Source of the DNA: Dermatophagoides farinae
Taxonomy: Eukaryota > Arthropoda > Arachnida > Sarcoptiformes > Pyroglyphidae
Direction of reading: 5' to 3'
Length of the DNA: 64,000 nt
Assembly (NCBI RefSeq): GCF_024713945.1
Contig: NC_134681.1
Coordinates: forward strand, 1,736,001-1,800,000
Part shown: positions 2,274-61,482 of the stretch, one piece after another
Position numbering within the stretch: position 1 is the stretch's first letter
Layout: every line of letters begins with the position of its first letter
Translations under genes and position numbers: made by a program
The notes under the pieces: model-generated
The model's input: the letters and a program-made list of their open reading frames with translations, nothing else
Told to the model about the DNA's origin: nothing
The model's database searches: none

Positions 2274-3934
2274 ATGGAACTTTTTCCATCATCATGGCTG
2301 TACGGAATTTTGGCCAATATTGTTCTATTGGTTCTCATATCGATTCCATTGGTGTATTTTTATTCACAATATAGATTCAGCTATTGGAAACGTAAAGGTA
2401 TAAAAGGACCACCAACCTTACCATTTATTGGAAATTTTCTCCATCCAACTAGGCCTATTCCATTAATGCAAATGGATAATCTTCGTCAATATGGACATTT
2501 TTTTGGGTAAATATTTTCGTGTTTATATTTTCAACTCTGATTATCCTTTTTTTTTTGTTAAATTTCAGAATGTTTCGTGGCCGTCAGCCGGTATTATCTA
2601 TTTCAGATCCGGCCATTATTAAACGTATACTGGTACAGGATTTTCATCTATTCCACAATCGTATGCCAACAACAGATAGTAATGTAGTTTTATCACAAAA
2701 TTTAGTCTCTGCACGTTATGATAAATGGAAACGTGTTCGTTCAATATTGACACCAATGTTTACCACTTCAAAATTACGTAAAATGGAAGGACTTATGGGT
2801 CAATGTGTGGATTCATTATATCAAGCATTGGATCGTTTAGCTAAAACAGAATCATCATTCCCAGTGCATAATGTTATGGGCAATTTTACTATGGACGTTA
2901 TAGCTAAATGTGCATTTGCAACCGATACCGATGCTCACAATGAAAAGGAAAATAAATTCGTGGTCAATGCACGTAAATTATTGGAATTCAATCTCATCAA
3001 AGCATTGTACACATTTTTGGTGCCAATTTTTTTGAAAAACATTCTACAAACATTTCGTATCAAATATTTCTTGTCACCAGAACGAGATTTTTTCCTCAAC
3101 ATTTGTTTCCAATTGATTAAGCAACGAAAACAGAATACAACCGCCAAATATAGTGATATGCTTGAATTGATGATCAAAGCTAAACATGGTAAGGATCGAT
3201 TGATGGAAGATGATGATAAATTTGATTCATATCATGTGAATGTCGGCGATGAAGAAAAACTACGGGAAGAGAAACTTTTAAGTGAAATTATTGGATCAAA
3301 ATATCTAAGTGAAGAAGAAATTGTGGCACAGTCTTTTATTTTTTTTATTGCCGGCTATGAAACAACTGCTTCAACGTTGACATTTGCACTCTATGAATTG
3401 GCAACGAATCCTGACATACAGAATCGTTTATATGAAGAAGTTAAAGCCATTGTTGATAATGGTGAACCATTGGATTATGATCACGTAATGAAATTGCCTT
3501 ATCTAGATGCAATTATTGCCGAAACATTGAGGTTACATTCTCCTGTTTTGACATTGAATCGTCAAGTTTCTGCTCGTTATCCTATTCCAGAATATAATTA
3601 TACAATGGAAAAAGATGAATCTGTTTTCATACCTATTTATGCTATTCATCATAATCCAGAATTTCATCCGAATCCGCTACGTTTTGATCCTGAACGTTTT
3701 GTGCCTGAAAATCGTGATAAAATCATACCATATTCATATCTTCCATTTGGCGGTGGTCCACGTAACTGTATCGGAATGCGTTTTGCAATGTCCGAAGCTA
3801 AATTAGGCCTTGCAAGATTGATTAAAGATTTTATATTCTTCAAATCATCGAAAACATGTGATGAATTGAAGATTAAGAATGGTTTATTTTTGTTGAAAAC
3901 CACTCCCGTTTGGGTTGGTGTTAAACGTCGTTAA
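2274..3934 (+). CDS. Cytochrome P450, CYP3 clan
   Basis: Haem monooxygenase of the microsomal type, 532 aa. Exons are 2274-2506 and 2569-3934, with a 62-bp intron joined as GG|A. An N-terminal membrane anchor (residues about 9-31) is followed by the proline-rich hinge GPPTLPFIGN. The I-helix oxygen-binding motif AGYETT is at about residue 339. The K-helix ETLR, the FDPERF meander and the haem loop PFGGGPRNCIG follow, with the axial Cys at about residue 478. All key motifs and the overall length are intact, so it should be active on the ER membrane with NADPH-P450 reductase. The FIAGYETT and FGGGPRNCIG forms and the overall layout fit the CYP3 clan (CYP3/CYP6/CYP9-like), which commonly handles xenobiotics and pesticides. 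The exact subfamily and substrate cannot be read from motifs. Confidence 0.93.
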
Positions 3935-7463: not shown

Positions 7464-9920
7464 ATGGCCAAGTATATTGATTCTAAATCTACAATTACAA
7501 CTATTTTGACAATAAACAATGTGCCTTTGACATATTCATCATCATTCTTAGTGATTATTATAATGATAATTTCAACAACAATAATAACGATAATACCAAC
7601 ATATGAAATGGCCATCATACCAACCCAACAACAAAGACAGAATCGTTTTAAACTTGTTGTATTTAGTTTTGATGGTTTTCGTCCCGATTATATTGACATA
7701 GAACGTACACCAAATCTTTATGCTGTCGCTAAAAATGGTGTCCAAGGTACGATTACAATTTTGTTGTTGTTGTTGTTGTTGTATCAAATTTCATTATTGA
7801 ACACACGCGATAATTGATTAAATTTTCCATTTTTTTTCATTATCAAATCAAATCATGTCATATGATGATGATTGAATTGAAATAGGTGAAATGCGATCAA
7901 CATTTGTAACGAAAACGTATCCAAATCATCAATCAATTGTCACTGGATTATATGAACCATATCATGGAATAATTAATAATTTATTTATCGATAATCAAGA
8001 AACAAAACAATTATTCAATGTGAATAATAATAGTATCTATTGGTGGGATCAGAATAATATTTCTGTGCCGATTTATATTGCAAATCAATATTATGAACCA
8101 AATCGTTATAGTATTTCAATACAATGGCCTGGATCAATATCAAATTATACCGATGGTTTTAATTTCAATCACCGGGAACGTGTTTATTATCTTGAAAATT
8201 ACAACGCTAATTCTGATTGGTTTCATTTTATTGATCTTTTAATGAAATGGTTACTTGATCCAGTAAAACCAGCAAATGTTGCATTTGTTTATTTCCCTGA
8301 ACCAGATAAACATGCACATCAATTTGGACCGTTCAGTGATGAAGTTTATGAACAAGTTAAACAATTGGATAAAGTAGTTGGATATTTTCGTAAACAATTA
8401 TTAACAAATCATTTAGCACATATAACAAATGTTATTTATCTATCTGATCATGGTATGGCTGAAATTCGTTCTGAACGTTCATTATATATAGATCGATGTG
8501 ATGAATATTATCCTGGATTAAAATATGAATTATATGGTTCAAGTCCAGTTTGGTCTGCGATACCAATATCGGCACCTAAATCATCCATATCAAATAATCA
8601 AAAATTATCATTAGCTGAATCTGTTCGTGATGCATTGAATAATTGTAGCCATGAATATTTTAATGGAAAATTCACTGCCTATTTACAGGAAGATATTGCT
8701 GATGAATTTCATTATAAAAATAATATTCGTATATTACCATTATTCATTATAGCTGATGAAGGTTATGATATAAACTACAAGGATGAAGGATGGCGGCCAA
8801 AAGGTTATCCAATATGGGGTAATCATGGTTATAATGCATCATTGCCATCAATGCGTCCATTATTTTTAGCACAAGGTCCAAGATTTAAATTTCAATATCG
8901 TCATCCAGTGCCATTTGAAAATATTGATCTCTATCCATTAATGTTGAATTTATTGGATATTCCACAAAAAAGTTTTCCTCGTACAAATGGTACATTTGAA
9001 CGTGTTCATCAAATGTTATCGAATCGTCTTTATTTAAATGATAATGAATTTACAATGGGTCTTTACGATATGTTTGATCATAATGCCGATCACAATACAT
9101 GGATGTTATGTAAGTATCTTGAATTGAATGATGATTAAGCCAATGAAAAAAAAAATCCTAATCAATTCTTTCTTTTCTTTTAGTATTTCTTTATTTAATG
9201 ACTGGATTTTTAATTCTATTTATGGTTGGTTTCTGTTTTGTATGTATTTCTGGACGATTAGAAAAGAACTATCTCCGTAATTCTATTGATTCATCATCAA
9301 CTACACGATCAAGATTGACAAATTATTTACGAAAAATTTCATACGGTCATCATAATAATAATCAAATGTCTAGTTATCGTATGTTTGCCAATGAAAGACC
9401 AACATCACATCTTGATTCATCGGATGATGATGATTCTGATGATGGTGGTGAAAATGAATTATACAATCGTCATAATCATCATAGTCATCAGCAGCAGCAG
9501 CAGCAACAACAACAACAACAATCACAAAAATCAAAAATAAATCAAAAAAATCAACTTACAGATATTGATTGGGATATATTGGGTACTGGGCTTGATATCG
9601 ATCTTGTTGGACAATTGAATCAATCATCATCATCATCATTGCATATTACGAAACGTAATGAATATCTACAAGATTCTAGTAATGATGATGATGATGATTA
9701 CATTAAATCATTGGAAACAAAAACGACATCTACAATGGCCAAACGAAATGAAGCCATTTCATTGTTAATTTCTGATGCTGATGACGATGATGATGATGAA
9801 AATGATGAAGAAATTAAAGCAAAAATTAATATAAAAGAATATGAAAATCTAATATCCGAATCCATGAATGTCAATGATGATGATGATAAAAAAATTGATA
9901 ATAAATTGATTGATATTTAA
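7464..9920 (+). CDS. Ectonucleotide pyrophosphatase/phosphodiesterase, type I membrane form (ENPP4/5-like)
   Basis: Exons 7464-7746, 7886-9109 and 9184-9920 give 747 aa. The alkaline-phosphatase-fold catalytic domain carries the metal ligands and nucleophile of the family: FSFDGFRPDY (Asp about 70), KTYPNH with the Thr nucleophile, EPDKHAH, SDHG and GNHGYN. It should hydrolyse extracellular nucleotide or phosphodiester substrates. A hydrophobic N-terminal segment (residues about 27-49) acts as signal or anchor. A second membrane helix (LYLMTGFLILFMVGFCFVC) lies after the catalytic domain, as in ENPP4/5. The cytoplasmic tail of about 220 residues is unusual: a poly-Gln run and repeated Asp/Ser-rich blocks. 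Active-site residues are complete. Whether the N-terminal helix is cleaved is uncertain. Confidence 0.88.
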
Positions 9921-24536: not shown

Positions 24537-27500
24537 TTACCAAGTATTTAAATTAAGAAAATAATTAATAAAAAATTGTTCTGGTGTTAGTGTATCGATT
24601 TTGTATTTTTCATTATTGCCGATGCTGCCACTATTCATTGGTTGACCACTAAAACAAGACATCTGTTGATGTGCTGTTGCTATTGTTGTTGATGATAATG
24701 ATGATGATGATGACGAAGATGATGATGATGATTTTATTGTTCCATATGGTTGCTGTAGTAGTAGTTGTTGTTGTTGTTGTTGATGACCAGATTGATGAAT
24801 ATCGATTAATAATTGATTATTATCTGAATTATTATTATTGAATGTATAAAATGATTCCGGTGGCCTGCGTATTAATATTGGTCCAAATAATTTTGCTTCA
24901 TTTTTTTTGAGAACAAAACAAAAAACGTGAGAAAAAATTGTTTTTTGGAACAAAAAAAAACTTACAGATATAAAGTTTATTCAATGGTTTATCAATGCCA
25001 GAATTATTACACATTTCCTGCAAAAACATCATCAAATAATGGAATGCTGAACGATGAATTTCGGATAATTCATTATAAATCTAGAAAACAAAAAACGAAC
25101 GAAAAAAAATTTTTTTTTATTGATTTTATAAAGAATCATCAATCACTTTATTGCTAACCTGTTTACATTCACTATGGTTTTTATTTGCACGTTGTACACG
25201 ATCATAAAAAATGAACGGTATAATTGATTCAGGTAATGTTTCAAGAAATAATAATAATGCTTCAGCTAATGAATGTTCAGATACATTTGCTATTCTATTC
25301 GGATCACTTGAATCCAATGAATCACGTATGATGAAAAATTCATTTTCCATACCAGAACTTTGAAATATATTAACATTAACATAACCATTACGATAAAGAT
25401 GATCAATGAGAATGAATAATTCTTTCGGCAATGGAAGACCATCATCATTATTATTATCATTGACATTCATTGTTGACATTGATTCAGTTATAATATCAAT
25501 TAATCGTTCTTTATAATTAGGTAATTTTGAAACATGATGATCACCAAATTTTTGTTGAAATTCTTTCAATGTCATCGTTGCTATTGGTTGTTCCAATTGA
25601 ACCAATGTTTGCAATGAACAGCCAAAACAACTGAGACGATAATCACCAGAAATTGTGATGAAAATATCTTTTCCACCAATCAAACTTAATACTAATGTAT
25701 CGGCCAATGTTTCTAAGCCATAATTAAAACGATATGCCATTGATATATCATCGAAATTCAATTCAAATACAATGATAATTTCTTCTTTCACTTTAATCAT
25801 ACCAGTAGCTGGTGTTACACGTAACCATTGTTTACAGAAATTTTTATCATTTGGTTTATTTATAAAACGATAACGGATACGACTTTGTCCAGTATTTGTC
25901 AATGTTAACATACGACATGAATTATCTTTAAATGACACGGTACCGAAATTAATTTCCGTTGTATCAATGGAAACTTGTGGTAATAATTCATTTTCAACTT
26001 TATCCAATTTTTTCATCACATCTTCATATACTTTACGTTTAAGTTGATGGTCAATTAATAATACTTGTGATTCAAATAATGCTGATACTGGTTTATGATC
26101 ACTATCTTTCAATTCAGGATGTGATCTATATACCGTTTGATGGATATTTTCACCACGCCACAATATACGATCACACCATGCAGGTGGCCGCCGTTTTTCC
26201 GATGAATCCCATTCATTTGTACCAGTATTATATTTATATGATGGCATATGACGTATAATGGATTCATTGAAACCTTGAAAACAATTTTTCTCAAGCATTT
26301 GATTACGTAATTGATCAATAGCTAATAATTTATCAAATTCTTGAAGATTTAATAATTTTTTCACATAATCAGTATCTGATGTCATTATACGATAGTTTAA
26401 ATCACCAAACCAATAAATTTGACTAGATTTAAATTCAAATAAAATTTTCATTTTCTTTTTTTTTAGAAAAAAAACAAACTACTAGAAACTTACTCATGAT
26501 CATAAATCCGTTTTGGTGTTTTAAGATTCATAAATTGTAAACGTGAATTAATTTCACGAAAATCCTGATTACGCCGTTCAAATTGTTCAACATGCGCGGC
26601 TAGATGACAATTGACAAAACAAATACTTGTATCATGTAGCTCAAAACGAATAGCGACACCGCCTTTATTTCCCTGTAAATATATTTTGCAATGAGAAAAC
26701 AAAAATGTCACAAAGAAAATACCTGACAAAACGAACCAAACTTACCATTTTTCCAAGAATCCCAGTGCCAACAGTTTCGGCTGCAACATTTTTAATAAAT
26801 TGCCGAAATTCTCTTGCAGCAAATATAATCAACATCATACCGATGAGGCGGATTTTTTTCAACAAAAAATATTGCCTCTCCGGATGTAATGATTGTTCAC
26901 AAATCTGTAACCAATAATCTTCTTTTTTATTATCATTAAAAAGAAATGCTTCTTTACTTAGATCTAATTCTTGAAAACCGATTGCATAAAAATCTGGTGC
27001 ATTAGCGTCTATCGATAAAAAATGTGTACGCATCACATCGGTATTCAACATTATCTGGCCATTTACATTCCATGTACCAATAAACAGTGTATAATTAACA
27101 TAACGTACATATTCATTTCTACGTTCTTCTGTTGCGGTTTGTATTTGCAATTCACGATTAAAATCACTATTAAGAAAATTATCCGTATCATAATCACCAA
27201 AATGTTCCGGTGATTCTGGTTCAATATAATTATTATTATTTATAATTGATTTCATTTGATGATTTTCATATTGTTGCTGCTGTTGATTCATATCGTCAAA
27301 CAGATTGATTAATTTATTTGAAAAATTTGAATTTTTTAATTTATTTTCAGATGATGATGATGATGGTGATGGATTTGAAATTGATCGTAAATTATCATTA
27401 TTACCACCATTTGATGATACTAATTCAACCAAAAGAGAGAGAGGGAGGGAGGGAGAAAAATAAAAAACGATTAGAAAAAAAAATGTCCAACAAATGATTA

Positions 27501-34746: not shown

Positions 34747-37700
34747 TCAAACAAAATTTCCCAATACTAATGCAACACCCATCTCAAGCCATCGTTCATT
34801 TGAATTTTGAGTGGTGGTTGTCGCTGTTGTTGTTTTTGTTGTTGTTGAACATGGTAATTGCCATTGTTCTAATAATGTTTGCCTTTTTGAACATGAATAT
34901 AATGGTATTTTTATCATTGTTTTTCGCTGCTGTTGATTACTGCTAAACGATGACGACGACGACGATGATGATGATGATGATTGTGATTGATTATCAATGA
35001 CATTATCTTTTGATTTTGAAAAAATCATCAATAATGATGGCATTAAACTAGTGAATGGTGAATCTGATTGACATTCTCGTAGTTGACCATTTTGAAATTG
35101 TGCTGCTTCAATCCAAATGCCATCTAATTTTATTATCATAATTTGATTTTGTCGTTGTCGCTGTTGATCAGTATCATTTTCATCATCATCATTCCAATGA
35201 TATTGAATGGATAAACAATCAATACTTGTTGATAATTTTTTTGCTACAAATTGTTTCAATGAATTTAGAAATAATTTTGGATGAAAACAATGTGTCATAT
35301 CGAATGTGGCACCAAATGTATCGGATGATTGATGTTCATCACCATTCATTGTGATTATTGTTGATAATTTCATATAAATTCTTGCTAAATTAATAAGAAA
35401 ATCTTGTGCAATTTCTGAACCATTAAGCCATACATTTAACCATGATTCTGGTGTATGATTAATTTGAATACAGGAATCTAAATTCACTGCTATTGGTTCT
35501 GAATGTAATTCACGATCAATTTGTAGTATTAATCTTTTAGCGAAATCAAATTCAAATAAAACAAATTGTCGTATGAATAAATCGATGGTTGGCGCGTCCA
35601 AAAAACTTGATTCCACTACAATATTATTGGCCATTTCTTCACGAAGATCATCAATTTGATCAATACGACACTTGCCTAGAATACGTAGCCATAATTTACG
35701 AAAATAACGAATTCCCGATGGATTTAATGATAATGTTTTTTGTTTTGATTCCGTTGATGATTCTGATTGTTGTTCTTCTTGTTGTTTGATGGCCGGCAAT
35801 GATGATGATGTAGTTATGGATAATAATTGTAAATTCTGTTTCAAACGTTTTTCCAATAAACGATCACGAAAATCATTTGCATTTGATGGTAATCCGAGCA
35901 TTTTAAAATCATTTGTTGATGATGACATTAACGATTGATCCATATTTGGATGAAAACATTTTCTGATCAAAATGCCAAGAACAATTTCGTCGATATTAAA
36001 ATCAATTTTACCACCATAGATAACTTGATGAAATAATCCTTCTAAATATTGATAAATTTTAAATTTTTGATTTTTCATCGATTCTTTCTTGGCTGATGAC
36101 AGTGAAGTTTTTTTCGTCATTTCCACAATCATCTTGTCAATAATATTATGTCCAAAATGAAATTCATTGAAACCAAATTCATAATTTTTATTCCAACCAA
36201 ATGGAATATAGAAACGACGTTCACAGCAAATGGCATGAAAATATTCAAGCAATTCATAAAGTTTATCAAAATCATGATCATTTTGGTTATGATTATTGGA
36301 TTTAGGCCTCTGCGATTGTGATCGTAATCGACGTAAATGTGCACGTAATCCAGGTGCAGATTCATGTGCAAATTTTATACAAATTTCCAATAATGTACGT
36401 GGAAAATGTTCACTTGACTCGGTGACTAGAATCAATGGCGGTTTTGTTGCCGTTGTCGTCTTGTGATTAGTTAGAATCTCGAACAATTTTGGTAGCCAAC
36501 CAATAACTAAATGTAAATTATTCAGACACAATACTTTTGGTTGTGGTTGTGATTGTTTAGATTTGCTAATAATCGATTGTTGTGTCATTTGAATCATTGA
36601 TGAAACCTTATCAATAGTGTCATTACCCATTGAAATCATTTGTAAATCATAGCCTAATTTTTCTATTGAATTTTTAATTTCCGTATTTGGATCTGAACCA
36701 GGCATTGTTATTATTAGAGCAATTTTTGCATTCATACGTGAAGATTGTTGTTGTTGTTGTTGAAATATTTCAGCCAAAAATTCACCAATATTCTGCGTAT
36801 TGATGTCATTATTATCCGATGTAATGAACAATTGTGTTGATTGTTTTGGAAAACAATTTTTTACAAATTGTCTAAATGTTCGTCGATGTTCAGCAAATAA
36901 TGCACGTGATATATAATGATAAAATGCTGCACAAACATCATCTTCATTGAATTCGGATTTTGCTCGCAATGAATCGATGAATAATTGTTCAAATTCTCCA
37001 TAACCAAAATAATACATTGGACAAAGTTTTGGCAGATTTTCCATTGAAAAATAAAGATTAGCTGCAAATTGTGAAAGATCTTTATATTGAATTCTTTCAC
37101 GTTCCAAATCGGATTTTAATCTATCGGATTCTTTTAATGAACATTCTACTTGTGCAGCAGATTTTTTCAAAAATTTCAATTGTTCAATAAGTGATGAATT
37201 TTCTAGAATATTACCCGTTCCTTCTTTCGATGATAATTTGGCCAATAATTCATTTTCCAATTGTTTTAATTGTTTTTGTAGATCACGTACACGATCATCA
37301 ATACGGATTTTTTCCGTTTCTAATTCTGGTTTTTTTACATCAATTATATGGCCAAGTAATTGTGATGAAATGCTGCCAAAACTTGGTGATAAATTTACCA
37401 CACGTATATTGGCCATTGTTAATGGCGATATTGATTGCAAATTATTTGTCATCAAATACAACGCGAAACGTGGATTATAATCCACTTTTTTCTCACCAAT
37501 AAATGTCCAAAATCTTGTATCCGATGAACCATGTATTGTGCCCATTATTAATGGTACAAGACGAATATCAAATTGATTGAAATCGGTTATGATTACCGTA
37601 CGACCAAAACGTATGCCAAGTTCGAGAATTTTTAGCCAATCTTTTGCATTAAAATCTATGATTTTTTCCCCGATGGTGGTCGTAATAATGATTAGTGAAA

Positions 37701-40700
37701 GTGATCAAAAAAAATGAAGAAAAAATCAAACTTACTTGTTATTTCAGCATTTTTAAAATGATTCAATGCTTTATGTGCTGGATCACATATCAACGGTATC
37801 ATCATCGGCCGTATCATTGTTGCCGAATTCGATGATGATGGTGATGATAAAGATGAACCAAAGAGAAGCATTTCTTCTTCAGTTTCAAATCCAAGAAATT
37901 CCATCAAATCAAATGAATTGATTTGATGAAATTTTTCAAACGATTGTTCAAAAATTTCCGTTCGCCGTTGATAACTTGATTCACGACATGCCTGTGTTAG
38001 ATATGCTGCAGCGATCATACATTTATATGGCATTTGTTTTCGTTCAATTTCAATTTGTAATAATTTTTCATTCCATCTTTGATGTTCATCACTAAGATCA
38101 TTGACAATTGATTCACTTTGTTCCAAAACTTTTGTTGATTTTTTCAAATTAATTTCAATTTGTGCCGCTTCCACTGTGACCGCTTGCATTCGTTCACGTA
38201 AAGTATCCACTTCGGTATCAACATCATGTAGCTGTGTGTCTAATGTACGAATTCGTGTCTGTGCACGATGTAAATTGGTTTCCAATTTTTTCAATTCCAT
38301 TTCTAATGGTTCGATTTTATGTAAAACACTTGAATATTCGACATTTGCTTTCACCCATTCAGCTAATGGTGCTGCTGCAGCTGATGCACGTTTTGCTGTT
38401 GTCGATTGAAAACTTTCACTACGTTTTCGTAGCAATTGTTCCACTTTTATTCGAATTTCAGGAGTAATTTTATGACAATCAAAATTCATTATATCTTCTT
38501 TAACACCTCTTTTCGATAGAAATGTTTTCATCGATGCCCATGATGTATCATTGACACCCATCAACCGTAGAACACCTTCAAGTATATCACGTATAACTTC
38601 TGGCGGTGCACGTAATGATCGTATTTCTGATAATGAATCTGAACGTATACCACCGATTGCTGCTTTAGCTGCTTGCAACATTGGTTCAATTTCACTTAGT
38701 TCTTCATCGATTTTTGATTTTCTTTCATGCAAATTTTCTGTCTCTACGCGAATTCTTTGTTGCACATCTTCTAATTCCAATTTTTTATCCTCTGATTGAT
38801 GCATTGAATTCATTATCAATTGAAATGCATCATCAGCTTCTTGTCGTTTATTATCAAGAAGTTTTTTCTGTTCCATTGCTTCATCTTTCAAAATTTTTAC
38901 CTGTGTCGATACCTGATCTAAACGTTCAACGCCTAATTTCATACGTTCATTTTCTTCATTTGATTTTGCCGATTGATAATAAAAAAGTTGTAAAAAAGTT
39001 TGCAAAAAATCCGTATATGAACGTATATTCTCTGTATTCAAATCAATGACTTTTTGATCCTGTTGTTGTTGTTGTTGTTGTTGTTGAAAATGTTGATAAA
39101 TTGGATAAAACATTTTAATGATTGAATCAAACGATGATTCATCATCAATAATATGTTTATCAATCTGTGGACGAATTAATCCAGCCGTTAGACTATTGTA
39201 ATCATCCATTGTGAATGAATCTGAACGATGTATTTGTGATGCTTTACGTAGCCACATTAAATGATCCATAGATGTTAATCGTGTTGTTGTCATTATTAAT
39301 CTTATAGTCATTATATTCGAAGCTTGTTGCTGCTGTTGTTGTTGTTGATTATAAGAATTAATCTGTGTGTAAATTTGATCACGTAAATATGGTAAAATTT
39401 CCAAATGAATTTCATCAATCAATAATAATAATCGTCGTTGATTATTATTATCATCATCCATAGCCGTATTATCATCATTTGATAATAATGCAGATAGTTC
39501 ATTGCGTAAATGTCGTTCTGATTGTATGGAATCTGGTGTCCATATTCTATCATAACCAAAATTATGTGCAATTGTTTTAATGAGAAATTTTCTTCCATTA
39601 CCATTATGGCCAATAATTAACATTATTGGTATCGATGATGATTGACCATTACACTGATTATTAATAGCCAGAAATGAACATAAATCAGCCACTAATGTTA
39701 ATGTATGATTCAATTGTGGCCATTCCTGTTGATGATTGTTATTCAAATCATTTTCTTGACAATAATTTCTAATCCATTTTTGTATTTGTAATTGAAATTG
39801 TTCATAATTTATTTGCTGATATCGTTGTTGACCATCAAGACTTGTGAAATATAAACGATTTTCATTACCATTGTTGTTGTCATGATCACCATCATTCATT
39901 AATGTTTTCAATAAATTACGATAAGATTTCTGTGATAAATGATTCATTAATGTACGATAAATTTCATAATCAATACATTTTTCATTCAAACAATCATAAT
40001 GATTCAATGAATCAATAATATTGATACCAATTTTAAGAAAATTATTAATCTTTTCTTCGCCACCATCATCATCATTATTATTTAAATATAATTGTCTGAT
40101 TATATCGATATAATGGCTAGCAAAATATTCATGTTCATTTGGATTAATATTCGTACATGATTGTTGTATTTTTGTATGTAAAATTTCTTTAATTTCTTCC
40201 AATGAATAATGTTCAAATTGTATTAAATGCAATCGAGTTAGTAAACGTTTATCAATCAGTCGTACATCTGTACATGATAATATTAATTGAAAATTTGTCA
40301 CATCCACTGTAATCCATTCGAATGTTTCTGGATGATAGAAACCATTATGTTTTAACATTAATGTTAATAATGATACCAATGAATTTGATGACCATTTATC
40401 ATATGATAATAATTCAAAATGACGTATAAATAACCAAATTTGTTGTTGTTGAACATTTTGTGCACGTAACATACGATTTGTACCTGAATGAACAATAGTT
40501 GTTGTATTCATTAAAAGTTTCAACAATGTTTCAGCATTAGTGGTTGGTGTACAATCGACAATTAAAAGATGACCATTCATCATTGATGTAAATAATAATT
40601 CTTGTGCCAGAATCGTTTTACCACAACCAATTGGACCAATCAAACAGATATGTTGTCCAATTAATGGTTTTAACATTTCTATATAACGTCTTACTGAATC

Positions 40701-43700
40701 GGTTATTATTAGATTCGTATTATTAGCTACCATTGTTTCAATATTACCAACGTGATGATGCCCAGAAATACGATCAATAGCACGTGATTCATCTTCATGA
40801 TTTAATTGACAATAATGTAAATGTTTCAATAATGAACGTGCTGTTGATATTGGTAAGAATAATTGTTGATGATTTAGATTTAAATAATTCTGTATAATTG
40901 AAATGGCTGTAAATGATAATTGATTCTGGGCAACAAAACATTGTACCATTTCATTAATCATAATCATATCGATCGATACGACGCCCAATCTTGATATAGT
41001 TGCTGGTGATGCATTTTTCAATGATGTTGTTTCAAACAATATACGGCAATGATTTAAATCAAAATCAATCCTCTCACCAGATGGTAATGTCAGTACACGA
41101 TTATCATCTAGAACTGAATTTAATGCTTCCACCCAATCTGGATCAATATCACCATCGAATATTATCCAATTCATTGTATGTGAAACATTATTATCATTGC
41201 CGCCATCATCATTATTACGTGTTATTTCGCGTGATTTGGCTGAAAATAGACCATCATGCCATTCACGTGTATCATCATCAATATAACCGAATAATCGTGA
41301 TCTTGGCATTGATTTTGGATTAATAATGATCACATCGATTATGCTCGATTTATTCATTGTCGATGTTTTTGACAACTGTTCCAATGAATGACGTAACATT
41401 TGCCATATTGTAGTTTTACCTGAACCGGATGGTCCAATCAATACAACACCAAAACGTGTTTGAATCTGTTCATAAAGTTGAAGAATTTTTTCCATTTGAT
41501 ATTCATTATGTATTAGATTATTATCATTGAAACATTTTTCCACAATATCCACAAGCAAATCGTTTGATTCGGAATTCATTTGTATTGGTTGCGTTTGTTT
41601 TGAATTAAAATCTACGATATATTCTGAACCAAAAACAGCTTCAATTAGGCCATCAAATTTCAATGCATCCGTATCGACTAATTTGGATTTAATCTGTTGT
41701 CTAAGCGTATCGATCACTAAAGCAATTTCCATTTGATATTCATTTGAATTTGATGTTTCATCCATTTTCATTGCCATACGATTCTGATTCAAACGTCGAC
41801 CACTTGATTCAAGACATGCTTTTATTGTACGTAAACCCCAATCATAATGTTTCTGTTGTGACATACTACCCTGTGCAAATTCAAACCAACATGGTATTTT
41901 ATCACCAAGAATTTTCGTGGCCATATCGGAAAATCCTTCAGCTAATGATAAAAATCGTACAATTGTTTTGATTTCCGGCACAGTCATTGCTACTGGTAAA
42001 AATAATGATTTCAAATTATCCGGTATACGATTACGGCCACCATATTCTTTACCGGCTGGATTCAATGTTATGAATATTGCTGCATTATTATTTATTGCTA
42101 CATGACCATATTCATTTAAATTCACGGTTTTTGATTCATTTTTAATTGCATATTGTATTTCTTGTATCTGTGATGATAACACTGATAATACATCCAATTG
42201 AAGACGATTAAATTCATCGAAACAACCCCAATTTCCGCATTTAAGTAGGCCAACAATAATACGTGTCATTGATTTAACATCAATAGCTTCATCACAATTG
42301 AATACAAGTACTTGACGTCCAAAATATTGTCCTAATGCTTTAACACTTTCAGTTTTACCGGTTCCAGCCGGTCCATATGGATTACCACCAAGACCCAGAT
42401 CCATTGCTTGTGTGAGGGTCAAGAAACATTTATTTGTTAATGTTGTCGAAACTAATTTTGAATCACCTAAACAGCCAAGATATTCAAATGAATAATCAAA
42501 CGATGCTAATCCCATACATATTTTTATATTAGCTGATTGTTGTTGTTGTTGTTGTTGATTTATCACATAGAAACGTAATTGTGATTGCCATAGCCAATGT
42601 TTTTGATCTTTTACATCGGCATCGATCAATGATTGAATAACATTTAAATAATGAATCAGATCCAATACAACTTGTTTGATTTTGATTTTTGATAAATTTT
42701 CATTAATTGAATTTGAATGATTTGAATTAGTTGTTGATAATGATTCGAATAATTTTTGATGAAATTCAGTGCCATCTTTAGTCATTGTTGAAAGTATTTG
42801 TTCATAATGTTTTCGTAGATCAATGAGATGATTTTTATTGATTGCCATTTCTACTGATTCAGTAAAATCAATATAACAATATAAACTTAATATCTGTGAT
42901 GGTAATGTAGCAAATAAATCAAAATCATTATAAATGGTTTGTTTTATGGACAATTTATCCATGAAAATAAATTTCAATGTCGATTTAATCTGTTCGTCTA
43001 AATTTTGAAGCCATTTTTCAATCGCTGATGGTCCATTATTATTATCCATTTGAATCGAATGCCGTAATCTTATACGTTCACCTTGAATGGATTCAATTGC
43101 CTCAATCAGATAATCATTGTTTTGTGTATGTGTGTTCTGATATACTAAACAACCGATTGTATTGACGAATAATTTTTTCACCAAACCAGATTGATTTAAA
43201 TCAACTTTACCCGATAATATTAGCAGTAAATCTTCATCGGCTAAAAAATAAAATCTTGGAAATCGTTGCCTTGATTCTTCAATAAATGTACGTAATTTTT
43301 TCTGTGTATTCGTAAAATTCTGATCAATCGTACGCAGTCGATTTTCCCAATCATTTTTCATTTGTAATAAATATACAAATCGACCGCTATTTCGATGAAT
43401 TGATTTCATTAATTCTTGAAAATCATTTGAATATCTTATGAATGTAGTATCGTGAAAAAAACTTGGCCCATTTGACGATGATCCACGATGATCATGATAT
43501 ATTGGTTCCAATGAAATCCATTTTCGTTGTATTGAATTCAATAAAATGATCAATGATTCAAATCTCACCAATTTCATTTCCCATTCCTGATATTGGTCCA
43601 GATATTCATTGGAAATTTCTTCATTATCCATATTACGTATAGTTTGTATAAGTAAAAAACAATCTGATATTTGATTATAACATTGATACCAATCTTTTAT

Positions 43701-46700
43701 CAACATAATTTCATGATCATCTTTTGTACGATATGGATATAATATAAAATGGCCATCCAATGCAAATTGATTCAAATCGTTCAATGATTCACGTAATAAA
43801 TTATCATTATAAGCACGTTTATTAATGTCCAAAATTTCTGTACGACAATCACGTAATTTGTCCTGATAAATCCATAAATCAGATAGTTTTAGATTTTCAT
43901 AACTTAAATTTTTATGACCAATAATTTGTCCAATAAATTGATTCCAATGTAATTGTTGATAATTATCACCGCGACAGATTTCGATTAAATTAAGAAATTT
44001 TTGCCATCGTTCAATATATAATTGTAGATAGCCATCATTGGATGGATGTTGTTCCAGCCAATCATTAATGTATTGATTAATTTTCTGCAATTTATTACGC
44101 GAAACAATCCATTCCATTTCTTGATATTGTGATAGACCTTTTTCAAATTCATAAAGTATATGAAATTTTTCATACAATTCACGTATCTCAACATTAATTT
44201 GTTGTATCTGTTCAAATGATTTTGGTCGTTGTACATGAAAATATTCACAACTTGTTGACAATTCTGTCATTTTCATCATCAATTGATTGGAATTTATTTG
44301 AAAATCATTTATTATTTCCGGTGTTTGTCGCATTTGATCATTCAATTGAATCCAACGATTTAGAAAATTATCAATTTCTTCATCAATTGTATTCAATTCT
44401 ATTGATAATTTTGATTGCAATTGTTCACGATAATTTTCCAACAATTCCATACGATTATTATAGATATTTTCAAATTCATTTATAATCAATTTTGTTTGAT
44501 CAAATTTTTGTGCCAATTCTTTTATATCGGCTGTAAGCGGTGTGGCCAATGTTGACCATGATCGAAAAAAATGTATCTTTTCACGTAATGTTACATTATC
44601 GACATTTAATCTTGTATAAATTGGTTCCAATTTTTCCATAATCATTTGATCAAATTCAATCAATTCATTAATATTGATTGGACAATGTTTAAGCTGTTCA
44701 ATTGTTTGCCGGCAAATTGTTTCAATTCTATCAATCTCCTGTTGACATTGATCACGAAATGTGTGTAATAATACGGTTTCCGTTTCATTGAATAACCATT
44801 CAATGAACATTTTGATCGGTATTATATTTACGACGAAAATACTATTTTCACAATGAATTTCATTGATCATTGAATATTCATTTGAAAATTTTAACGATAA
44901 ATTTCTGATTAATTCAAGATTATATTGATAATCTTCTAATGTTTTACAGGAAAACATTTTCGATTTTCCATCACCATTATCATCAATAACAGTCGGTTGT
45001 TGATGAGTCATACGATTATAATTGCTGGATTTTATCATTTTAATTAAATTATAAATAGCTGTCCACCGGGCAAATTGTTCACGAATCCGGATCAATTCAT
45101 CGATGGCATCGAAAACTTTATGATAAATTGCCGTAAAATTCGTAGCATTTCGATAATAAATATTATGAAATAATGTTCGCGGTGCTGAAGTGGTTGTAGT
45201 TGCACCACTAATACCATTCATCGATGATGATGATGACGATGATGGATTAATCTGTGCATCTAATGACCAATCAACAAATGCATGAAATATTGATGGAAAT
45301 CTTATGAAATATTGAAAACGTTCGAATAATGATTTTTTTATTATTTCAAATGATGGTTCATATACCAAATAGCCAGATGGATTGAATTGTAATTCAATTG
45401 TATTGTCAATTGGATTCATCATTGGATGTTGTTTCCATTGTATAAATTCTTGATCCATAAACATGATAATCATTTCATTATGATGATTATCATCATTTGA
45501 TGATGATTTTATTGATTTTGCTGTTTTTATACGATTCAATTGTTTAGAATTCTGTTGTTGTTGTTGCTGTTGTTGCTGTTTTCGATTCATACGTATAATT
45601 TGATTGAAATAATATTCAAGAATCTTATATAGCTGATAATCCCAATGTTTACGCCATACATATGTATATTGATATGAATGATTCACGGATACTTCGCTAA
45701 TAATCAGACGAACTTTTTCAATTAAATGTTGCCATTGTGATAATGATGCATCAATCATCCATTTAATTGTTTCCAATATTTTTTGATGTAATCGTTGTAA
45801 ATGTTTATTTTGTTTTTGAAATTCACTCATAAATTGTTTCAATTCATCAATCCAACCGCTAATTGCATCCGATCCATCTGACCATTTTAATTGTTGTCGA
45901 CTTTCCAATAAAGTGGTGAATGCACGTGCACGATCAATCAACATTGGCCGCTGACTGGGCAGTATTTGTTCAGCCACATTCATATAGAAACGTACAATTT
46001 TCCTTAAATCATGTACAAAATCAATATATGTGGATATTTGTGATTCCATACGATCAATATCATCGGGTATTATGAAACGATATTGACGTAATTTACGTAC
46101 ATTCGTCGCTAATTTCTCTAGATTTTGACTTAACGTTATTCTTGGACGTTGTGTTTGTTCATCAATCACAATACATTGTTTGGTTAGATCATAATGAATA
46201 TTTTTCGAAACATTCGTTGACCAACGATGAAACAATTGTTTGGATTCTGATTCCAACATTTGTGTTGTTTCCGTTAGATTTATACGATACATGTTTAAAT
46301 CTGAAACATCACGAAACATTAGCGGTATATTGGCAACAATATTTGCCAATAATTGTTGCCGTTCTTTAAATGTTAATATTTTCATCGCCATACGATTTAA
46401 TTCACGCCCAATTTGTCGTTCTTCTTGGTCATTGTCATCAATAACATTACCACTACCACCTAGCGGTTGTGTTTCATCATCATCATCATCATCATTTGAA
46501 CTTTGACTGGATGATAGATTTTTCTCCAACAAATCATCTGATGATGAATATTCTAATAATGTTTCTGACCATTCGCTTAATTTTCGAAGAAATTCTGTTC
46601 GTTCCTCTAGAAGATTCTAAAGAAAGAGAATAATGAATTTTTTTCTCCAAAAAAAAATAAATAAATAAAAACTAACCTGAAGAACTTTATCACGATCAAT

Positions 46701-53666: not shown

Positions 53667-54933
53667 TTAAATTTTGTTTTCTTCTTCTATCCAAATTGAT
53701 TCGGTCGTTGAAACTATTGGTGATGATTCGGAATCGATTGGATAATCTGAACGAATTTGATTGAAAATCCAATGAATATATTTAGCAACACGTGTATAAA
53801 CACCTGGTTGATCAGGACGTGCACAACCACGACCCCATGATACAATACCAATTTGATAGAATCGTTGTTTATCATTATCGCCATTAGGATTACCATTGAT
53901 AATCATTGGACCACCTGAATCACCTTGACATGAATCACGGCCACCCATTTCATATGCAGCACACAATTGTCGTGCATCAATACGTTTTTCACCATAAATT
54001 TTTCTACATTTTTCATTACTTATAATCGGTATTTGTACTTCATGTAAACGATTCGTTATAATGCCACCTTCACGTTGATGGCCCCATCCAATAATAGTGG
54101 TATTATGACCGGCAAGAATTTTTTCATCAATTCTCGTAGTTGGTAAACAAATTGGATATAATGTTTGCGTGAATTTGAGTGTTTCATTCAATTTTAATAA
54201 TGCAATATCATTCATTATAAATCGTGGTGCATACGATTCATGTGGAATTACCTTTTCTATGGACAATAACTGACCAATTGATGATTCGCTTTGATTATTT
54301 TTTCTCAATAAAATATCGTCCAAATTAATATCCGGTTTCGTTGTTGTTGTTGTTGTCGTCGTCATCGTCGTCGTCACCGTTGATGATGTTGAATTCAATT
54401 TTTTATTATTAATCGGTAATCGATTAGAACCGATAAAGACTTTTAAATTTTCAGCCAATGTTGTTGTATTGACACTACCACGTGTAATACAATGTGCAGC
54501 TGTCAATATATATTTTGTACCGATGATACTACCACCACAAATGAAACGTTGATGACGATAAATACCGACCATCCATGGCCATGAATTTGATTTGGATTCA
54601 TGACCACCAACAATATATGGATCAAAAGTTTCGGTTTCTAGTTTTATTTTATTTTTTCCATATGAATCAGAAACATGTAAACCACCACAGTTTGCTTTAA
54701 ATATTGAATTATTATTATTACATTTAATGGAAAAAATAAATGAAATAAAGTGAGAAAAACATACTTATGTTTAGAATTTGTTGAACAATTAATTCATCAT
54801 CATCATCATCGTTGTTGTTGTTGTCATCAATATCGTGGCTATACAATGATGATGAAATGATGAAAAATGATAAAAATATCCAAATAATAAGTGGATGAAA
54901 ATTCAAAAACCAAATACTATTTGTTGTATGCAT
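53667..54933 (-). CDS. Secreted trypsin-like serine protease (S1 family)
   Basis: Exons 54933-54765 and 54694-53667 give 398 aa. A signal peptide (WIFLSFFIISSSLYS) is followed by an Asn/Asp-rich pro-region. The mature start is IVGGHESKSNSWPWMVG at residue 84. The triad is TAAHC, NDIALLKL and GDSGGP. The S1 pocket is trypsin-like (Asp in GGRDSCQGDSGGP, SWGRGC, QPGVYTRV), so it should cut after Arg or Lys. Two features are odd. The residue before IVGG is Tyr (TFDPY), not the usual Arg/Lys. A poly-Thr/Val insert also lies between the His and Asp blocks. A short acidic tail follows the domain. It could belong to digestive or haemolymph cascades; no clip domain is seen. Confidence 0.9.
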
Positions 54934-56184: not shown

Positions 56185-57524
56185 TCAAGATTTTCGATGC
56201 CGTAATGTTCGTGTTGTCGATGATGATGATGATGATGATGCACTAATGGAACGTTTTTTATTATTACTACCACTACTACTACCACCACCACCACCACTTC
56301 CGGTTGTATTTGATACATTTTTAGCTATAGCCGCTGTCGATGATGATGATGTGTTTAATGGATCGCTTTGTGAATTTGTTTTTGAACAATTTTTTTTCGT
56401 ACGTTTTAATGAATTTTTCATTTTTTTCGTCGTATTTCCATCATCAACATTATCATTAGATGTTGATTCAGATGATGATGGATCAGAATCTGAATCCGAA
56501 TCATCATTCGAATCAGAATCAGATGAATTTGAAGAATCATCATCATCATCAATTTCTTCATCATCATCATCATCATCCTGCTCATAATCTTCATCATAAT
56601 CATCTAAATCATCATCATCGTCATCGTCATCGTCATCATCGAAATCATCATAAACCATATTATCTTGTTGTTTATTTCCTTTTTTATTGGTTGATTTTGA
56701 TTTTGTTGATAATGATCGTTTATTACCTGTTGTTTGTTTATTATTATTATTCATCATTTTATTTGATTTATTATTGGATGTTGTAGATTTTTTCATTGTA
56801 TTTGATGATGATGATTTGGATGATTTTTTCGTTGTAACAGTATTTGTGGATTTTTTCCCAGATTTCGATTTTTTTGATGATGATGTTGTTGTTGTTGTTG
56901 TTGATTCATTTGTTGATTTCATTAATGTTTGATCATTAATCGTTACTGTATCATTGATTATAGTGGTGGTGGCGTTGGTGGATGAATAATTCATCATAAC
57001 TGTATCATCCATTGTACGTTCTTCATCATCATCATCATCAATAATATTATCATTAGCAGTAGAAGCAGCAGAATTATCATTTGTATTTTGATTAATCGAA
57101 TTTCCTATCATTAAATTTGATGAATTAATTATTGATCGATTTTTTGTTGTATTTGATTTTGTCGTAGACATCGATTGCTGTTGTTGTTGTTGTTGTTGTT
57201 GTTGATCATTATTATTATTATTATTATTATCATCACCAATCATTGATGTTGATTCACGAATAGCTGGTGGTGGACTCATTATTGTTGTTTCATTATCGGT
57301 ATCTACTTCGGTTACATCCGATTTATCTTTTTCATCATCATCATCACTTTTTTTACTACTACTACTATTACTGTTACTGTTACTATTGCTATTACTATTA
57401 CTATTACTGTTATTATTTCCATTTCCTATTTGTTTATTTTTACTATTTTTATTATTCATTGATGATTGTGATTTTTGCTGTTTTTGTTGCTTTTGTTGTT
57501 TTTGTTTTTGCTGTATTGGTTGTG

Positions 57525-57555
<31 letters not shown>

Positions 57556-60500
57556 ATATATACCGGCCATCGTTGTTGCTGATGATTGTTGTTGTTGTTG
57601 TAATGATTTAGCCATCTGTAAATGAGGAGGAGGCTGATGTTGTTGTTGTTGATGATGATGATGATGTTGACCATCCGGAAGGGGATATTGTTGTTGTGGT
57701 AGTATAGGCGGTTGTTGTTGTTGTTGTGATGGATGTTCCTGTTGATGACGATGATGATGATGTGGTGGTAATGGTGGCGGTACACCCGAAGGTATTCCAC
57801 CATATCTTTGTTGTTGTTGATGATAATGAAGTTGTTGTTGTTGTTGCAGTGATAATGGTGGCGGCGGTGGGTGATGAGGATGATGTGATGGATGGCCATG
57901 TAGATGATGTTGTTGTGATGATTGATTCTGCGGATGCGATTGTGGTGGAAGTGATGGCGGCGGTGGATATTGTTGATAATGTTGTGAATGATGTGAATAT
58001 TGATGAGGATGATGTGGATGTTGTTGTGAATGATGAAGATGTGGAGGTGGTGGTGGTGGGGGTGGACCATGATGCGGATGTTGATGATGATGATGGTAAC
58101 CCATCGTAGCCATCATTGATAATGAATCCGATGCTAATGTCGATGATGGTGGTGGCGGTGGTTGTTGTTGCGTTGCTGTTGAACCGGAAATGGCTTGAGC
58201 TTGTGCTTGAGCTTGAGCAGCGGCAGCTGCAGCTGCAGCTTTGGATTTTTTCGAATTTGATTTAGTTTCTGATTTTTCTTTCGCTGCTTTCTTTGCACCG
58301 TTTGCTTTTGAACCACCAGCTGCTTTTTTCGTTGAACCCCCACCACAGGTTGATTTGGATTTTTTTCCATTACCACCAGTTGGATTGGTAGGTGGTGTTC
58401 CGGGTATATTGTTCATATGTTGTGGATTAGATTTTGATGTAACAGAACCAGTCGATGTCATTGGTGGCATACTACCATGTGGTGGTGTTTGCATATGAGG
58501 AGGCGGTATTGGTTGTCCTGGTGGTACACCCGGGGGCATACCACCATATCGTTGCTGTTGTTGTGGTTGTTGAGGATGCATAGATCCTTGAGGTGGGGGA
58601 TGTGGCGGAATCATTGATTGTTGTGTATGTTGATGATGACCATGATACATATTGGTATGATGATTCATACCACCAACACCACTACTTCCTTGATGTGAGG
58701 GTGGTCCATAATTTATAGGCATATTACTACCTGGGTTAGCTACCGGTGGTCGCCTATGATGATGTTGTTGTTGTTGTGAATGATGTGTATGATGCGGATG
58801 TTGTTGAGATGATGATGGTGGTGGCGGGGGTGGTGGTCCAGTATTACTACCACCAACAGCATGAGGATGATGTGGATTATATGATACTGTAGTTGTAGAT
58901 GATGTTGGTCCACTTAATGCATTACGCAGATTATAATTCATATCAACATGATGTGGATGATGTGCTGAATGTGATGGCAATGTTGATGTTGATGATGATG
59001 CTGATGGTAGTGGTGGTGGTGGCAATGGTCCATGTGGATGATGTGGAACACCAGTATGATGTAAATGTGGTGGTAATGGCGGCGGTGGTGGTTGTGGTAG
59101 TGTTGGCTGCCCATGATGATGATGATGATGATTACCACCCGGATAATTACTCGGACTATTATTATTAGAAATTGTATGTGACATTTTACCACTCATTGGT
59201 CCATATTGGTTAACGGTTGCCGATGATAATGTTGTACCATATTCCATTGCTGCTGATGATTGTATACCACCACTAGTTGTTGATGAATGTTGTATAGAAA
59301 TTGTTGTTGCCGTTGATGATATTGATTGGCTAACATTTGATCCCATCGATTGTTGTTGCTGTTGTCCATGATGTCCATGGTATGATACCGATGTTGATGA
59401 TGATGATATTGGTCCTGGAACATTAGATATTTGTGATCCATGTTGATAAGAATGTTGTTGTTGTTGTTGATGATGATGATGATGATGTGATTGTGGTGGT
59501 GGTGGTGGTTGACTACTTTGTTGTTGTGGACCTTGTTGAGGATGATGACCACCACCAGCAGTATGATGATGATAGCCAATTGCATTTGGTTGATTATTAT
59601 AATTTAAATGTGCAGGAATATTAGATGTTGATGATTGTTGTGATGAAATTGTTGCCACTGCAGCAGTCGTCGTTATCGTTGTTGTCGTCGATGATGATTG
59701 CGTTTGAGAATTATTATTATTATTATTATGATTGAAGCTCGTTATATTCTGTGTATTTTGGTGTTGTTGTTGTATCATGGTTGTATGGCTATTATTTGAA
59801 TTTGAATTTGAATTCAATGATGATGTATGATGATTGGTCAAATTACTTCCACCATATTGCACCATTTTATTATTATTATTATTTGGCTGCGTTAATTGAT
59901 TTTGGCTTGTTTGATATGATGATAAATTATCATTTTTATTTGGCTGCATTGAATTTATTATTGGCGATGATGATCGATCATTATTATTATTATTCGTTAT
60001 TGTTGTTGCCATCATTTCTTGTGAATTTTCATTCAAATTTAAATTACGATTATTATTCATTGATAATGGTGGCGATTTAGTTGTTGTTGTTATTGTTGTT
60101 GTTGTTGTTGACGGTGGTGGTGTTGTTGTTGCAGTTGTTGACGATGAAACATTTAATTTCACATTTTCCATACCAATTGATTGTTGTTGTCCATTGCACT
60201 GTAATTGCTGTTGTGACGATTGTTGCTTTATAGTATGGCTATTTACATTTGTTATTGCTGTGGTGGTAGAATTTTTCTGATTTCCATCTTTAATCGTATC
60301 ATTACCATTAATCAATAATTTATCATTTTCCTGTTGTTGTTGTTGTTGTTGCTGTTGATGTTTTTGATCACTATATTGTTGTCGAATCTGTTCCATAGCT
60401 GTATCAATCATTTTTTGATACATTTCTGTATCAAATGCAGGCTGTTTACTATAACGTTGTAATTGGCGATTAAATTCTTCACTTGATTCAAGTAATTTAC

Positions 60501-61482
60501 GTTTTTTCTCTTTAAATAATTGTTCCATATTTGCCAATTCACTGAGTGATCTTTCTTGATGTAGGATTAATGAATCAGCCTGTTTACGTAATACTTCTAA
60601 ACGACTATTCGTGACGATTGTACGTACATCGGGCATAACTTTATCGGAAAATACTTCAGATATCAATATATTATTACGATGATAACGTGTTGCAGCCATT
60701 TGTTTATTACTATTTGTTAATCCAATGCCAACCATATTGCCACCACCAGCAGCACCACCGATGGCCATGCTGCTAATACTACAACCACCACCACCACCAC
60801 CACCTATATCATCATCAATAGTTGAATTGATTAATTCATCTTCCGGATAATAACCGAATTGATGATATGGTGAATCATATTGATGTGATGATGATGTTGA
60901 TGATGATGATGAATTTCGATCATCTTTCATATTCATTTGTTTCTACAATTTTTTTTTTGTTCAATTAGTTCAATCAATTAGTAATCAATTTAACAAAAAA
61001 AAAACAAATTATCTTACTTTTCGATTTGATTTATTTGGTTTTTCATTTTTCGATTTTGTTGATCGATTTGAATGTGATTCCTGTTTGAAATTCAAGAATT
61101 AAATGATTTTTTTTTTGCCATTTATAAAACAAAAACAAACCGTTCGATGTTGTGTCGGTATATGTACAACCACCGGTTTTGTTGGATTAAAATTTGGATG
61201 TCCACGATTTGAATGATAAATGAATGGTGAACCACCATGATTACCACCACCACCACCAACACCACCGGATGATGATGATGAATGATTGGAAGTAGCTGCA
61301 GCAACAACGGCAGCAGCAGCAGCAGCAGTTGCTACCGATGATGATGATGATGAGGATGAATTAGATGATGATAATGTTGTTGATGATGTTGTTATTATTG
61401 AACCAGATCCAGAATTCATATTACCGTTATTGATATTATTATTATTAATAGAACCGGAATTTGTAATGCCAGCACCAACCAT
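56185..61482 (-). CDS. SMARCE1/BAF57-like protein without a visible HMG box, with a giant low-complexity tail
   Basis: Exons 61482-61141, 61080-61018 and 60942-56185 give 1720 aa. Residues about 220-305 match the BAF57/BAP111 coiled-coil region closely: RYHRNNILISEVFSDKVMPD, VRTIVTNSRLEVLRKQADSL, and KKRKLLESSEEFNRQLQRYS. This region anchors BAF57 in SWI/SNF complexes. The family's HMG box should come just before it, but the upstream exons here encode only Ser/Asn/Ala/Gly-rich sequence, and the two introns (60 and 75 bp) cannot hide it. After the coil come about 1400 residues of poly-Gln, poly-His, poly-Pro, an Ala/Lys-rich H1-like patch, long poly-Asp and Ser/Lys runs. Human SMARCE1 has 411 aa. 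Either this is a derived paralogue, or the HMG exon lies beyond the window and the first exon here is an alternative start. Confidence 0.75.

What the first reader, a model, noticed from the sequence alone, without database searches (positions are those of the whole stretch)
56185..61482. BAF57/SMARCE1-like subunit that has lost (or outsourced) its HMG box and gained about 1400 residues of low-complexity tail
The SWI/SNF-anchoring coiled coil is well conserved, yet the DNA-binding HMG box that defines BAF57/BAP111 is absent from the visible exons, and the introns are too short to hide it. The tail has long poly-His, poly-Pro, poly-Gln and poly-Asp runs that could drive condensate behaviour. 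If real, it is a remodeller subunit that keeps complex assembly but drops direct DNA binding.
Basis: partly seen in the sequence, partly recalled or inferred. Interest (0 to 1): 0.7.

Follow-up and report, generated by a model that had tools for sequence, protein, structure and literature searches.

The report
Dust-mite remodeller paralog without DNA-binding box
A house dust mite carries a second copy of the SMARCE1 chromatin-remodeller gene that kept the part homologous to the complex-anchoring helix but lost its DNA-binding HMG box, while a separate normal copy keeps the box, and a partner subunit (ARID1) shows the same pattern of one copy with and one without its DNA-binding domain.

Summary
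On the minus strand (61482-56185) lies a three-exon gene for a 1720-aa protein whose coiled coil matches BAF57/SMARCE1 (E 2e-20). It has no HMG box, its introns are 60 and 75 nt, and scans of the window and the next 20 kb found none.

The genome (Dermatophagoides farinae by a Der f 21 match) also has a conventional SMARCE1 on another contig, with an HMG box (E 9e-39 to human) as its middle exon. Both genes share the exon-1 motif GHPNFNPTK (two sites in 62 Mb), a phase-0 intron after it, and the coil. So this is an old paralog whose middle exon is 63 nt where the sister's is 286 nt.

ARID1 is duplicated too, and no ARID DNA-binding domain was found at one copy. Five other subunit families gave one locus each.

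Best reading: mites build SWI/SNF with alternative DNA-binding-lobe subunits, and this one anchors without HMG. Incorporation, expression and presence in other mites are untested. The 1424-aa low-complexity tail is real but at the high end of what this genome does anyway; its basic stretches mean that loss of DNA contact is not shown.

The parts
61141..61482 (-). exon 1, 114 aa: Ser/Ala/Gly/Asn-rich leader, then the conserved motif GHPNFNPTK
   Evidence: in-frame stop 5' of the ATG, no AG between
61177..61203 (-). GHPNFNPTK codons shared with the HMG-bearing sister gene; the only two sites in the 62.4 Mb genome
   Evidence: 2 matches, 0 for the reversed-pattern control
61081..61140 (-). intron 1 (60 nt, phase 0; the sister gene has a phase-0 intron at the corresponding place)
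61018..61080 (-). exon 2, 21 aa, stands where the sister gene has its 286-nt HMG-box exon; may or may not be a remnant of that exon's 5' end
   Evidence: remnant alignment weak
60943..61017 (-). intron 2 (75 nt, phase 0; phase 1 in the sister gene)
56185..60942 (-). exon 3, 1585 codons plus stop: linker, coiled coil, low-complexity tail
60334..60708 (-). coiled coil homologous to human SMARCE1 188-313
   Evidence: E 2.2e-20; 39 of 81 identical in the core
56188..60459 (-). 1424-aa low-complexity tail (Ser, Gln, Asn, Pro, Thr, His)
58183..58419 (-). first lysine-rich stretch of the tail (residues 977-1055)
56644..56931 (-). second lysine-rich stretch of the tail (residues 1473-1568)
56380..56757 (-). 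strongly acidic stretch (net charge down to -39 in 60 residues)

Best explanation
The gene is an old, intact paralog of SMARCE1/BAF57 that has lost the HMG-box part of its middle exon and kept the N-terminal motif and the coiled coil. Shown: two SMARCE1-type genes in one genome, shared exon-1 motif, a phase-0 first intron at the corresponding place, homologous coil, HMG box present in one and not found in the other. Inferred: the coil docks this protein into SWI/SNF in place of the HMG-bearing copy, giving complexes that lack the HMG contact with DNA and carry a long charged, disordered tail instead. Because ARID1, the core of the DNA-binding lobe, is also duplicated and one copy lacks an ARID domain, the mite probably assembles at least two forms of the complex that differ in which auxiliary DNA-binding domains they carry.
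For: Coil homology to SMARCE1 and to the sister gene (35% identity, E 8.5e-18, 31 of 79 in the core). Sister gene has SMARCE1's own type of HMG box (E 9.1e-39), and no second box of that type was found (18 matches, next best E 8.4e-8, 33% identical). GHPNFNPTK codons at exactly two sites. Intron 1 place and phase. Coil equally close to human in both copies, 39/81 and 39/79. ARID1 core in two copies, one with an ARID about 4.5 kb upstream and one without. SMARCC, SNF5, SMARCD (SWIB), SMARCA (SnAC) and DPF gave one locus each (SNF5 as three and DPF as two adjacent matches). [quoted passage not shown] complexes with SMARCE1 HMG mutations still bind DNA and disrupt nucleosomes (PMC6194089, passages); a BAF57 lacking residues 1-133 acts as a dominant negative in mouse T cells (PMC3529186, passages).
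Against: No transcript or protein evidence was available. No other mite genome could be searched, so age and conservation of the HMG-less form are unknown. The phase of intron 2 differs between the copies. The idea that exon 2 is a remnant is weak: shuffle p 0.05 or 0.11 with lenient gap costs, and with standard gap costs the best alignment falls elsewhere in the HMG exon. SMARCD, which also belongs to the DNA-binding lobe, gave only one locus, so the whole lobe is not duplicated. An assembly deletion that kept frame and splice sites cannot be fully excluded. The tail's basic stretches could restore DNA contact. No structure was obtained.
Confidence: 0.6

Rival explanations
1. Natural antagonist: the HMG-less paralog competes with the HMG-bearing copy for the same slot and damps its targets, as the experimental N-terminally truncated BAF57 does in mouse T cells. 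Same anatomy, but the function is inhibition, not an alternative complex.
For: Coil kept and no HMG found; mouse BAF57 lacking residues 1-133 is a dominant negative (PMC3529186, passages). Neuronal N-terminally truncated BAF57 isoforms (Kazantseva 2009) were seen only as a reference-list entry.
Against: The coils of the two copies share only 31 of 79 residues, more divergence than a simple competitor needs, and the 1424-aa tail suggests a function of its own. The ARID1 duplication is not explained.
Confidence: 0.2
2. Partition between BAF and PBAF: one SMARCE1 copy serves the ARID1 complex and the other the ARID2/polybromo complex.
For: An ARID2-like frame is present (7vdv_Q, E 3.9e-16) beside an ARID match; both BAF and PBAF carry the SMARCE1 HMG domain in humans (PMC9839376, passages).
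Against: Would not explain two ARID1 genes; no sequence feature examined assigns either copy to PBAF.
Confidence: 0.15
3. Assembly or annotation artefact: the HMG exon was deleted in assembly or is joined by unusual splicing.
For: Only one assembly was examined; an in-frame loss within exon 2 would leave the remaining gene looking intact.
Against: Introns of 60 and 75 nt with GT..AG ends and no runs of N in the stretch read; no second SMARCE1-type HMG box found elsewhere in the assembly.
Confidence: 0.07

Closest known systems
SMARCE1/BAF57 (human) and BAP111/dalao (fly)
   Same: coiled coil homologous to human residues 188-313, preceded by a linker and a short N-terminal region
   Different: no HMG box found; 1424-aa tail; coexists with a second, HMG-bearing copy, whereas SMARCE1 is described as encoded in animals by a single gene (PMC6194089, abstract and passages) and the fly is listed with one BAP111 (PMC3307773, Table 2 passage). 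The fly protein itself was not compared here.
N-terminally truncated BAF57 (mouse dominant negative; neuronal isoforms)
   Same: BAF57 without the HMG box
   Different: those are engineered or alternative products of one gene (PMC3529186, passages; the neuronal isoforms seen only as a citation); here it is a separate gene
Yeast Rsc9
   Same: precedent for a DNA-binding-lobe subunit that lacks the DNA-binding domain of its relatives: Rsc9 has the ARM fold but no ARID (PMC9839376, passages)
   Different: it parallels the mite ARID-less ARID1 copy, not SMARCE1 itself
ARID1/Osa (for the companion finding)
   Same: the C1 copy matches the ARID1A core (E 1.1e-57) and Pfam BAF250_C
   Different: no ARID found in the 20 kb examined; a domain survey states that BAF250_C is uniquely associated with ARID and counts 236 proteins with that combination (PMC6181354, section 19 read)

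Membership tests
SMARCE1/BAF57 subunit | HMG box before the coil | tested here: not met
   none found in the gene, the window, 20 kb upstream or on contig C5
SMARCE1/BAF57 subunit | conserved coiled coil | tested here: met
   E 2.2e-20; 39 of 81 identical to human; homology only, docking not tested
SMARCE1/BAF57 subunit | common descent of the gene (shared N-terminal motif and first intron) | tested here: met
   by comparison with the sister gene of the same genome
SMARCE1/BAF57 subunit | incorporation into a SWI/SNF complex | not testable with these tools
   needs pull-down
SMARCE1/BAF57 subunit (sister gene on C2) | HMG box plus coil in one gene | tested here: met
   (gene model predicted, no transcript)
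ARID1/Osa (companion gene on C1) | BAF250_C/ARM core | tested here: met
ARID1/Osa (companion gene on C1) | ARID DNA-binding domain | tested here: not met
   none of 7 ARID matches near; best E 2.5 in C1:1239001-1259000

The most novel reading that the evidence does not exclude
Dust mites run two SWI/SNF assemblies whose DNA-binding lobes are built from paired paralogs that have divided or shed the auxiliary DNA-binding domains: either a stripped lobe (ARID-less ARID1 with HMG-less SMARCE1), or a swap in which each complex keeps one domain (long, ARID-bearing ARID1 on C5 with long-tailed HMG-less SMARCE1 on C5; compact ARID-less ARID1 on C1 with compact HMG-bearing SMARCE1 on C2).
Probability: 0.3. 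Interest if true: 0.8.

Novelty: new variant of a known kind. Interest (0 to 1): 0.6.

Why it matters
What SMARCE1's HMG box adds is open, since complexes with HMG mutations still bind DNA and disrupt nucleosomes (PMC6194089, passages). An animal that keeps forms with and without the DNA-binding domain as separate genes, for SMARCE1 and for ARID1, is a natural experiment: one can ask which genomic sites and functions need the domain and which need only the scaffold. If confirmed at the transcript level, it also corrects the statement that SMARCE1 is a single gene in animals.

Tried and rejected
An HMG exon hidden in an intron, elsewhere in the window or just upstream: not found by profile and single-sequence scans of 64 kb plus 20 kb. 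The profile had two of nine rows in the wrong orientation and was remade. A pseudogene: rejected, because the frame is open over 1585 codons and the coil is as close to human as that of the sister gene. Exon 2 as a proven HMG-exon remnant: not claimed. With standard gap costs the best alignment of exon 2 to the sister's exon 2 is a four-residue match in the middle of the HMG box; with lenient gap costs it is RSTKSKNEKP against RTTKQPKPPDKP at the start, with shuffle p 0.05 against the first 25 residues and 0.11 against the whole exon. The tail as a unique novelty: toned down, rank 4 of 54 open frames of 300 or more codons among the loci in hand (that set is biased towards HMG and ARID genes and not every frame need be a gene). 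A recent duplication: unlikely, since the two coils are less alike (31/79) than either is to human (39/81, 39/79); three sequences cannot date it. A general duplication of SWI/SNF genes: not seen, the five other subunit families tested gave one locus each; the remaining subunits were not tested. Structure prediction: busy twice, one job interrupted, then switched off. Literature: ten searches in an open-licence library; the ones aimed at mite SMARCE1 were 29 and 44, at SMARCE1 duplication 45, at ARID-less ARID1 63. In the listings I saw no report of a mite SMARCE1 or ARID1 paralog; only part of the results was listed for (15 of 37; 10 of 1,178; 10 of 1,098; 6 of 39).
Full report
What is there. 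The window is C5:1736001-1800000 of a 62.4 Mb genome in 22 contigs. A group 21 mite allergen gene in that genome matches Der f 21 from PDB in 112 of 113 aligned residues, the first being the exception, so the species is Dermatophagoides farinae or something nearly identical. The finding's gene runs on the minus strand from 61482 to 56185: exon 1 of 342 nt, exon 2 of 63 nt, exon 3 of 4758 nt with the stop, introns of 60 and 75 nt, all in phase 0, predicted product 1720 aa. An in-frame stop sits just before the ATG and no acceptor AG lies between.

Identity. Residues encoded by 60708-60334 match human SMARCE1 188-313 at E 2.2e-20, with the next PDB hit at E 0.082. Pfam gave no above-cut-off match to the coil of either copy (a PIN_8 match at E 0.0093 is below its cut-off).

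The HMG box. It was not found in exons or introns. The window plus C5:1800001-1820000 gives nothing above noise with an HMG profile (best E 0.79) or with the sister's HMG exon (best E 4). The sister locus itself scores 1.3e-28 and 3.2e-63 in the same runs, which shows only that the search works on its own source. Of 28 HMG Pfam matches in the genome none is on C5. Upstream on C5, a ubiquitin-hydrolase frame on the plus strand begins about 10 kb away (L010:5710-8475).

The sister gene. Searching the genome with the coil gives five matches at E up to 10: the gene itself, one at C2:229862-230236 (E 8.5e-18, 35% identity) and three with E of 0.0855 or worse. Immediately 5' of the C2 coil is an HMG box that matches human SMARCE1 at E 9.1e-39. 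No second box of that type was found: the next of 18 matches is 33% identical at E 8.4e-8. The C2 gene has three predicted exons (87, 286 and 623 nt with the stop), introns of 69 and 62 nt, and a 331-aa product. Its middle exon holds the HMG box. Its third exon matches human SMARCE1 146-337 at E 5.8e-24.

Common descent. Exon 1 of the window gene ends in GHPNFNPTK plus 12 residues, that of the C2 gene in GHPNFNPTK plus 9, each followed by a phase-0 intron. A degenerate pattern for that nonapeptide has two sites in the whole genome, these two, and none for the reversed pattern. The exon-3 linkers align up to the coil. So the window gene is the C2 gene's paralog with a 63-nt exon where the C2 gene has its 286-nt HMG exon. 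The short exon may be the start of the old HMG exon, but the match is weak and not the best one at standard gap costs, and the second intron differs in phase (0 against 1), so the exact event is not reconstructed. In the coil core, human to window is 39 of 81 identical, human to C2 39 of 79, window to C2 31 of 79. The duplication is old or both copies diverged fast, and neither copy looks more decayed than the other.

The tail. It has 1424 residues rich in Ser, Gln, Asn, Pro, Thr and His, 46 homopolymer runs of four or more, two lysine-rich stretches (residues 977-1055 and 1473-1568) and a strongly acidic one around 1561-1620. Among 54 open frames of at least 300 codons in the loci in hand, exon 3 ranks fourth in homopolymer content (0.166). 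It is thus an extreme case of a habit of this genome. The sister protein has little (0.039 against 0.169 for the whole window protein).

The companion observation. The ARID1 core domain BAF250_C occurs twice. The C5 copy (C5:1254758-1255606) matches ARID1A at 368 bits and has an ARID domain at C5:1260081-1260335. The C1 copy (C1:1241705-1242430) lies in an 861-codon open frame that matches ARID1A at E 1.1e-57 and in which Pfam finds BAF250_C alone. No ARID was found there: none of seven ARID matches in the genome lies near it, and the sister's ARID finds nothing better than E 2.5 in C1:1239001-1259000 (the hit at 6e-67 is the query's own exon). An ARID2-like frame with an ARID match beside it is also present. 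SMARCC, SNF5, SWIB/SMARCD, SnAC/SMARCA and DPF gave one locus each, SNF5 as three and DPF as two adjacent matches. So of seven subunit families counted, two are duplicated, ARID1 and SMARCE1, and in each pair one copy lacks its DNA-binding domain. SMARCD, which shares the lobe, is not duplicated, which speaks against a doubled lobe as a whole. A survey states that BAF250_C is uniquely associated with ARID and counts 236 proteins with the combination (PMC6181354, section 19 read). SMARCE1 is described as encoded in animals by a single gene (PMC6194089, abstract and passages), and the fly is listed with one OSA and one BAP111 (PMC3307773, passages).

How it most likely works. The ARM domain of ARID1A is the core of the DNA-binding lobe, and loss of SMARCE1 selectively destabilises BAF (PMC9839376, passages). 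HMG mutants of SMARCE1 still allow DNA binding and nucleosome disruption by the complex (PMC6194089, passages), while BAF57 without its first 133 residues acts as a dominant negative for CD4/CD8 control in mouse thymocytes (PMC3529186, passages). By analogy, the window protein should enter the complex through its coil and change targeting rather than catalysis. Whether it makes a working alternative complex (my preferred reading), an antagonist, or a BAF/PBAF division cannot be decided from sequence. Which SMARCE1 copy pairs with which ARID1 copy is unknown; both pairings are stated under the novel case.

Limits. No expression data, no other mite genomes, one assembly, no structure model. Absence of earlier reports rests on the listings of ten searches of an open-licence library, four of which were listed only in part. 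Kazantseva 2009 and the original dominant-negative papers were seen only as citations.

Noticed in passing
L040:2441-5026 (C1:1241441-1244026, minus): Second ARID1/Osa-like gene in one 861-codon frame with the BAF250_C core; no ARID domain found in the 20 kb examined.
   Followed up: partly
window 34750-46616, minus: Dynein heavy chain in two long frames of 2974 and 985 codons; the longer one matches cytoplasmic dynein-2 (DYNC2H1, intraflagellar transport type) best in PDB, 1082 bits.
   Followed up: partly
L007 (C9:3275840-3276037): HMG box that is the next closest to the SMARCE1 type (33% identity); looks like an HMG20A/B relative by recalled sequence only.
   Followed up: no
window 60334-60708: Pfam gave no above-cut-off match to the SMARCE1 coiled coil in either copy, so an HMG-less SMARCE1 could be missed by Pfam-based domain annotation.
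   Followed up: no
window 2480-3931 (+), 7876-9135 (+), 25129-26478 (-), 53670-54764 (-): Cytochrome P450, type I phosphodiesterase, OCRL-like phosphatase with RhoGAP, and trypsin-type protease frames.
   Followed up: no
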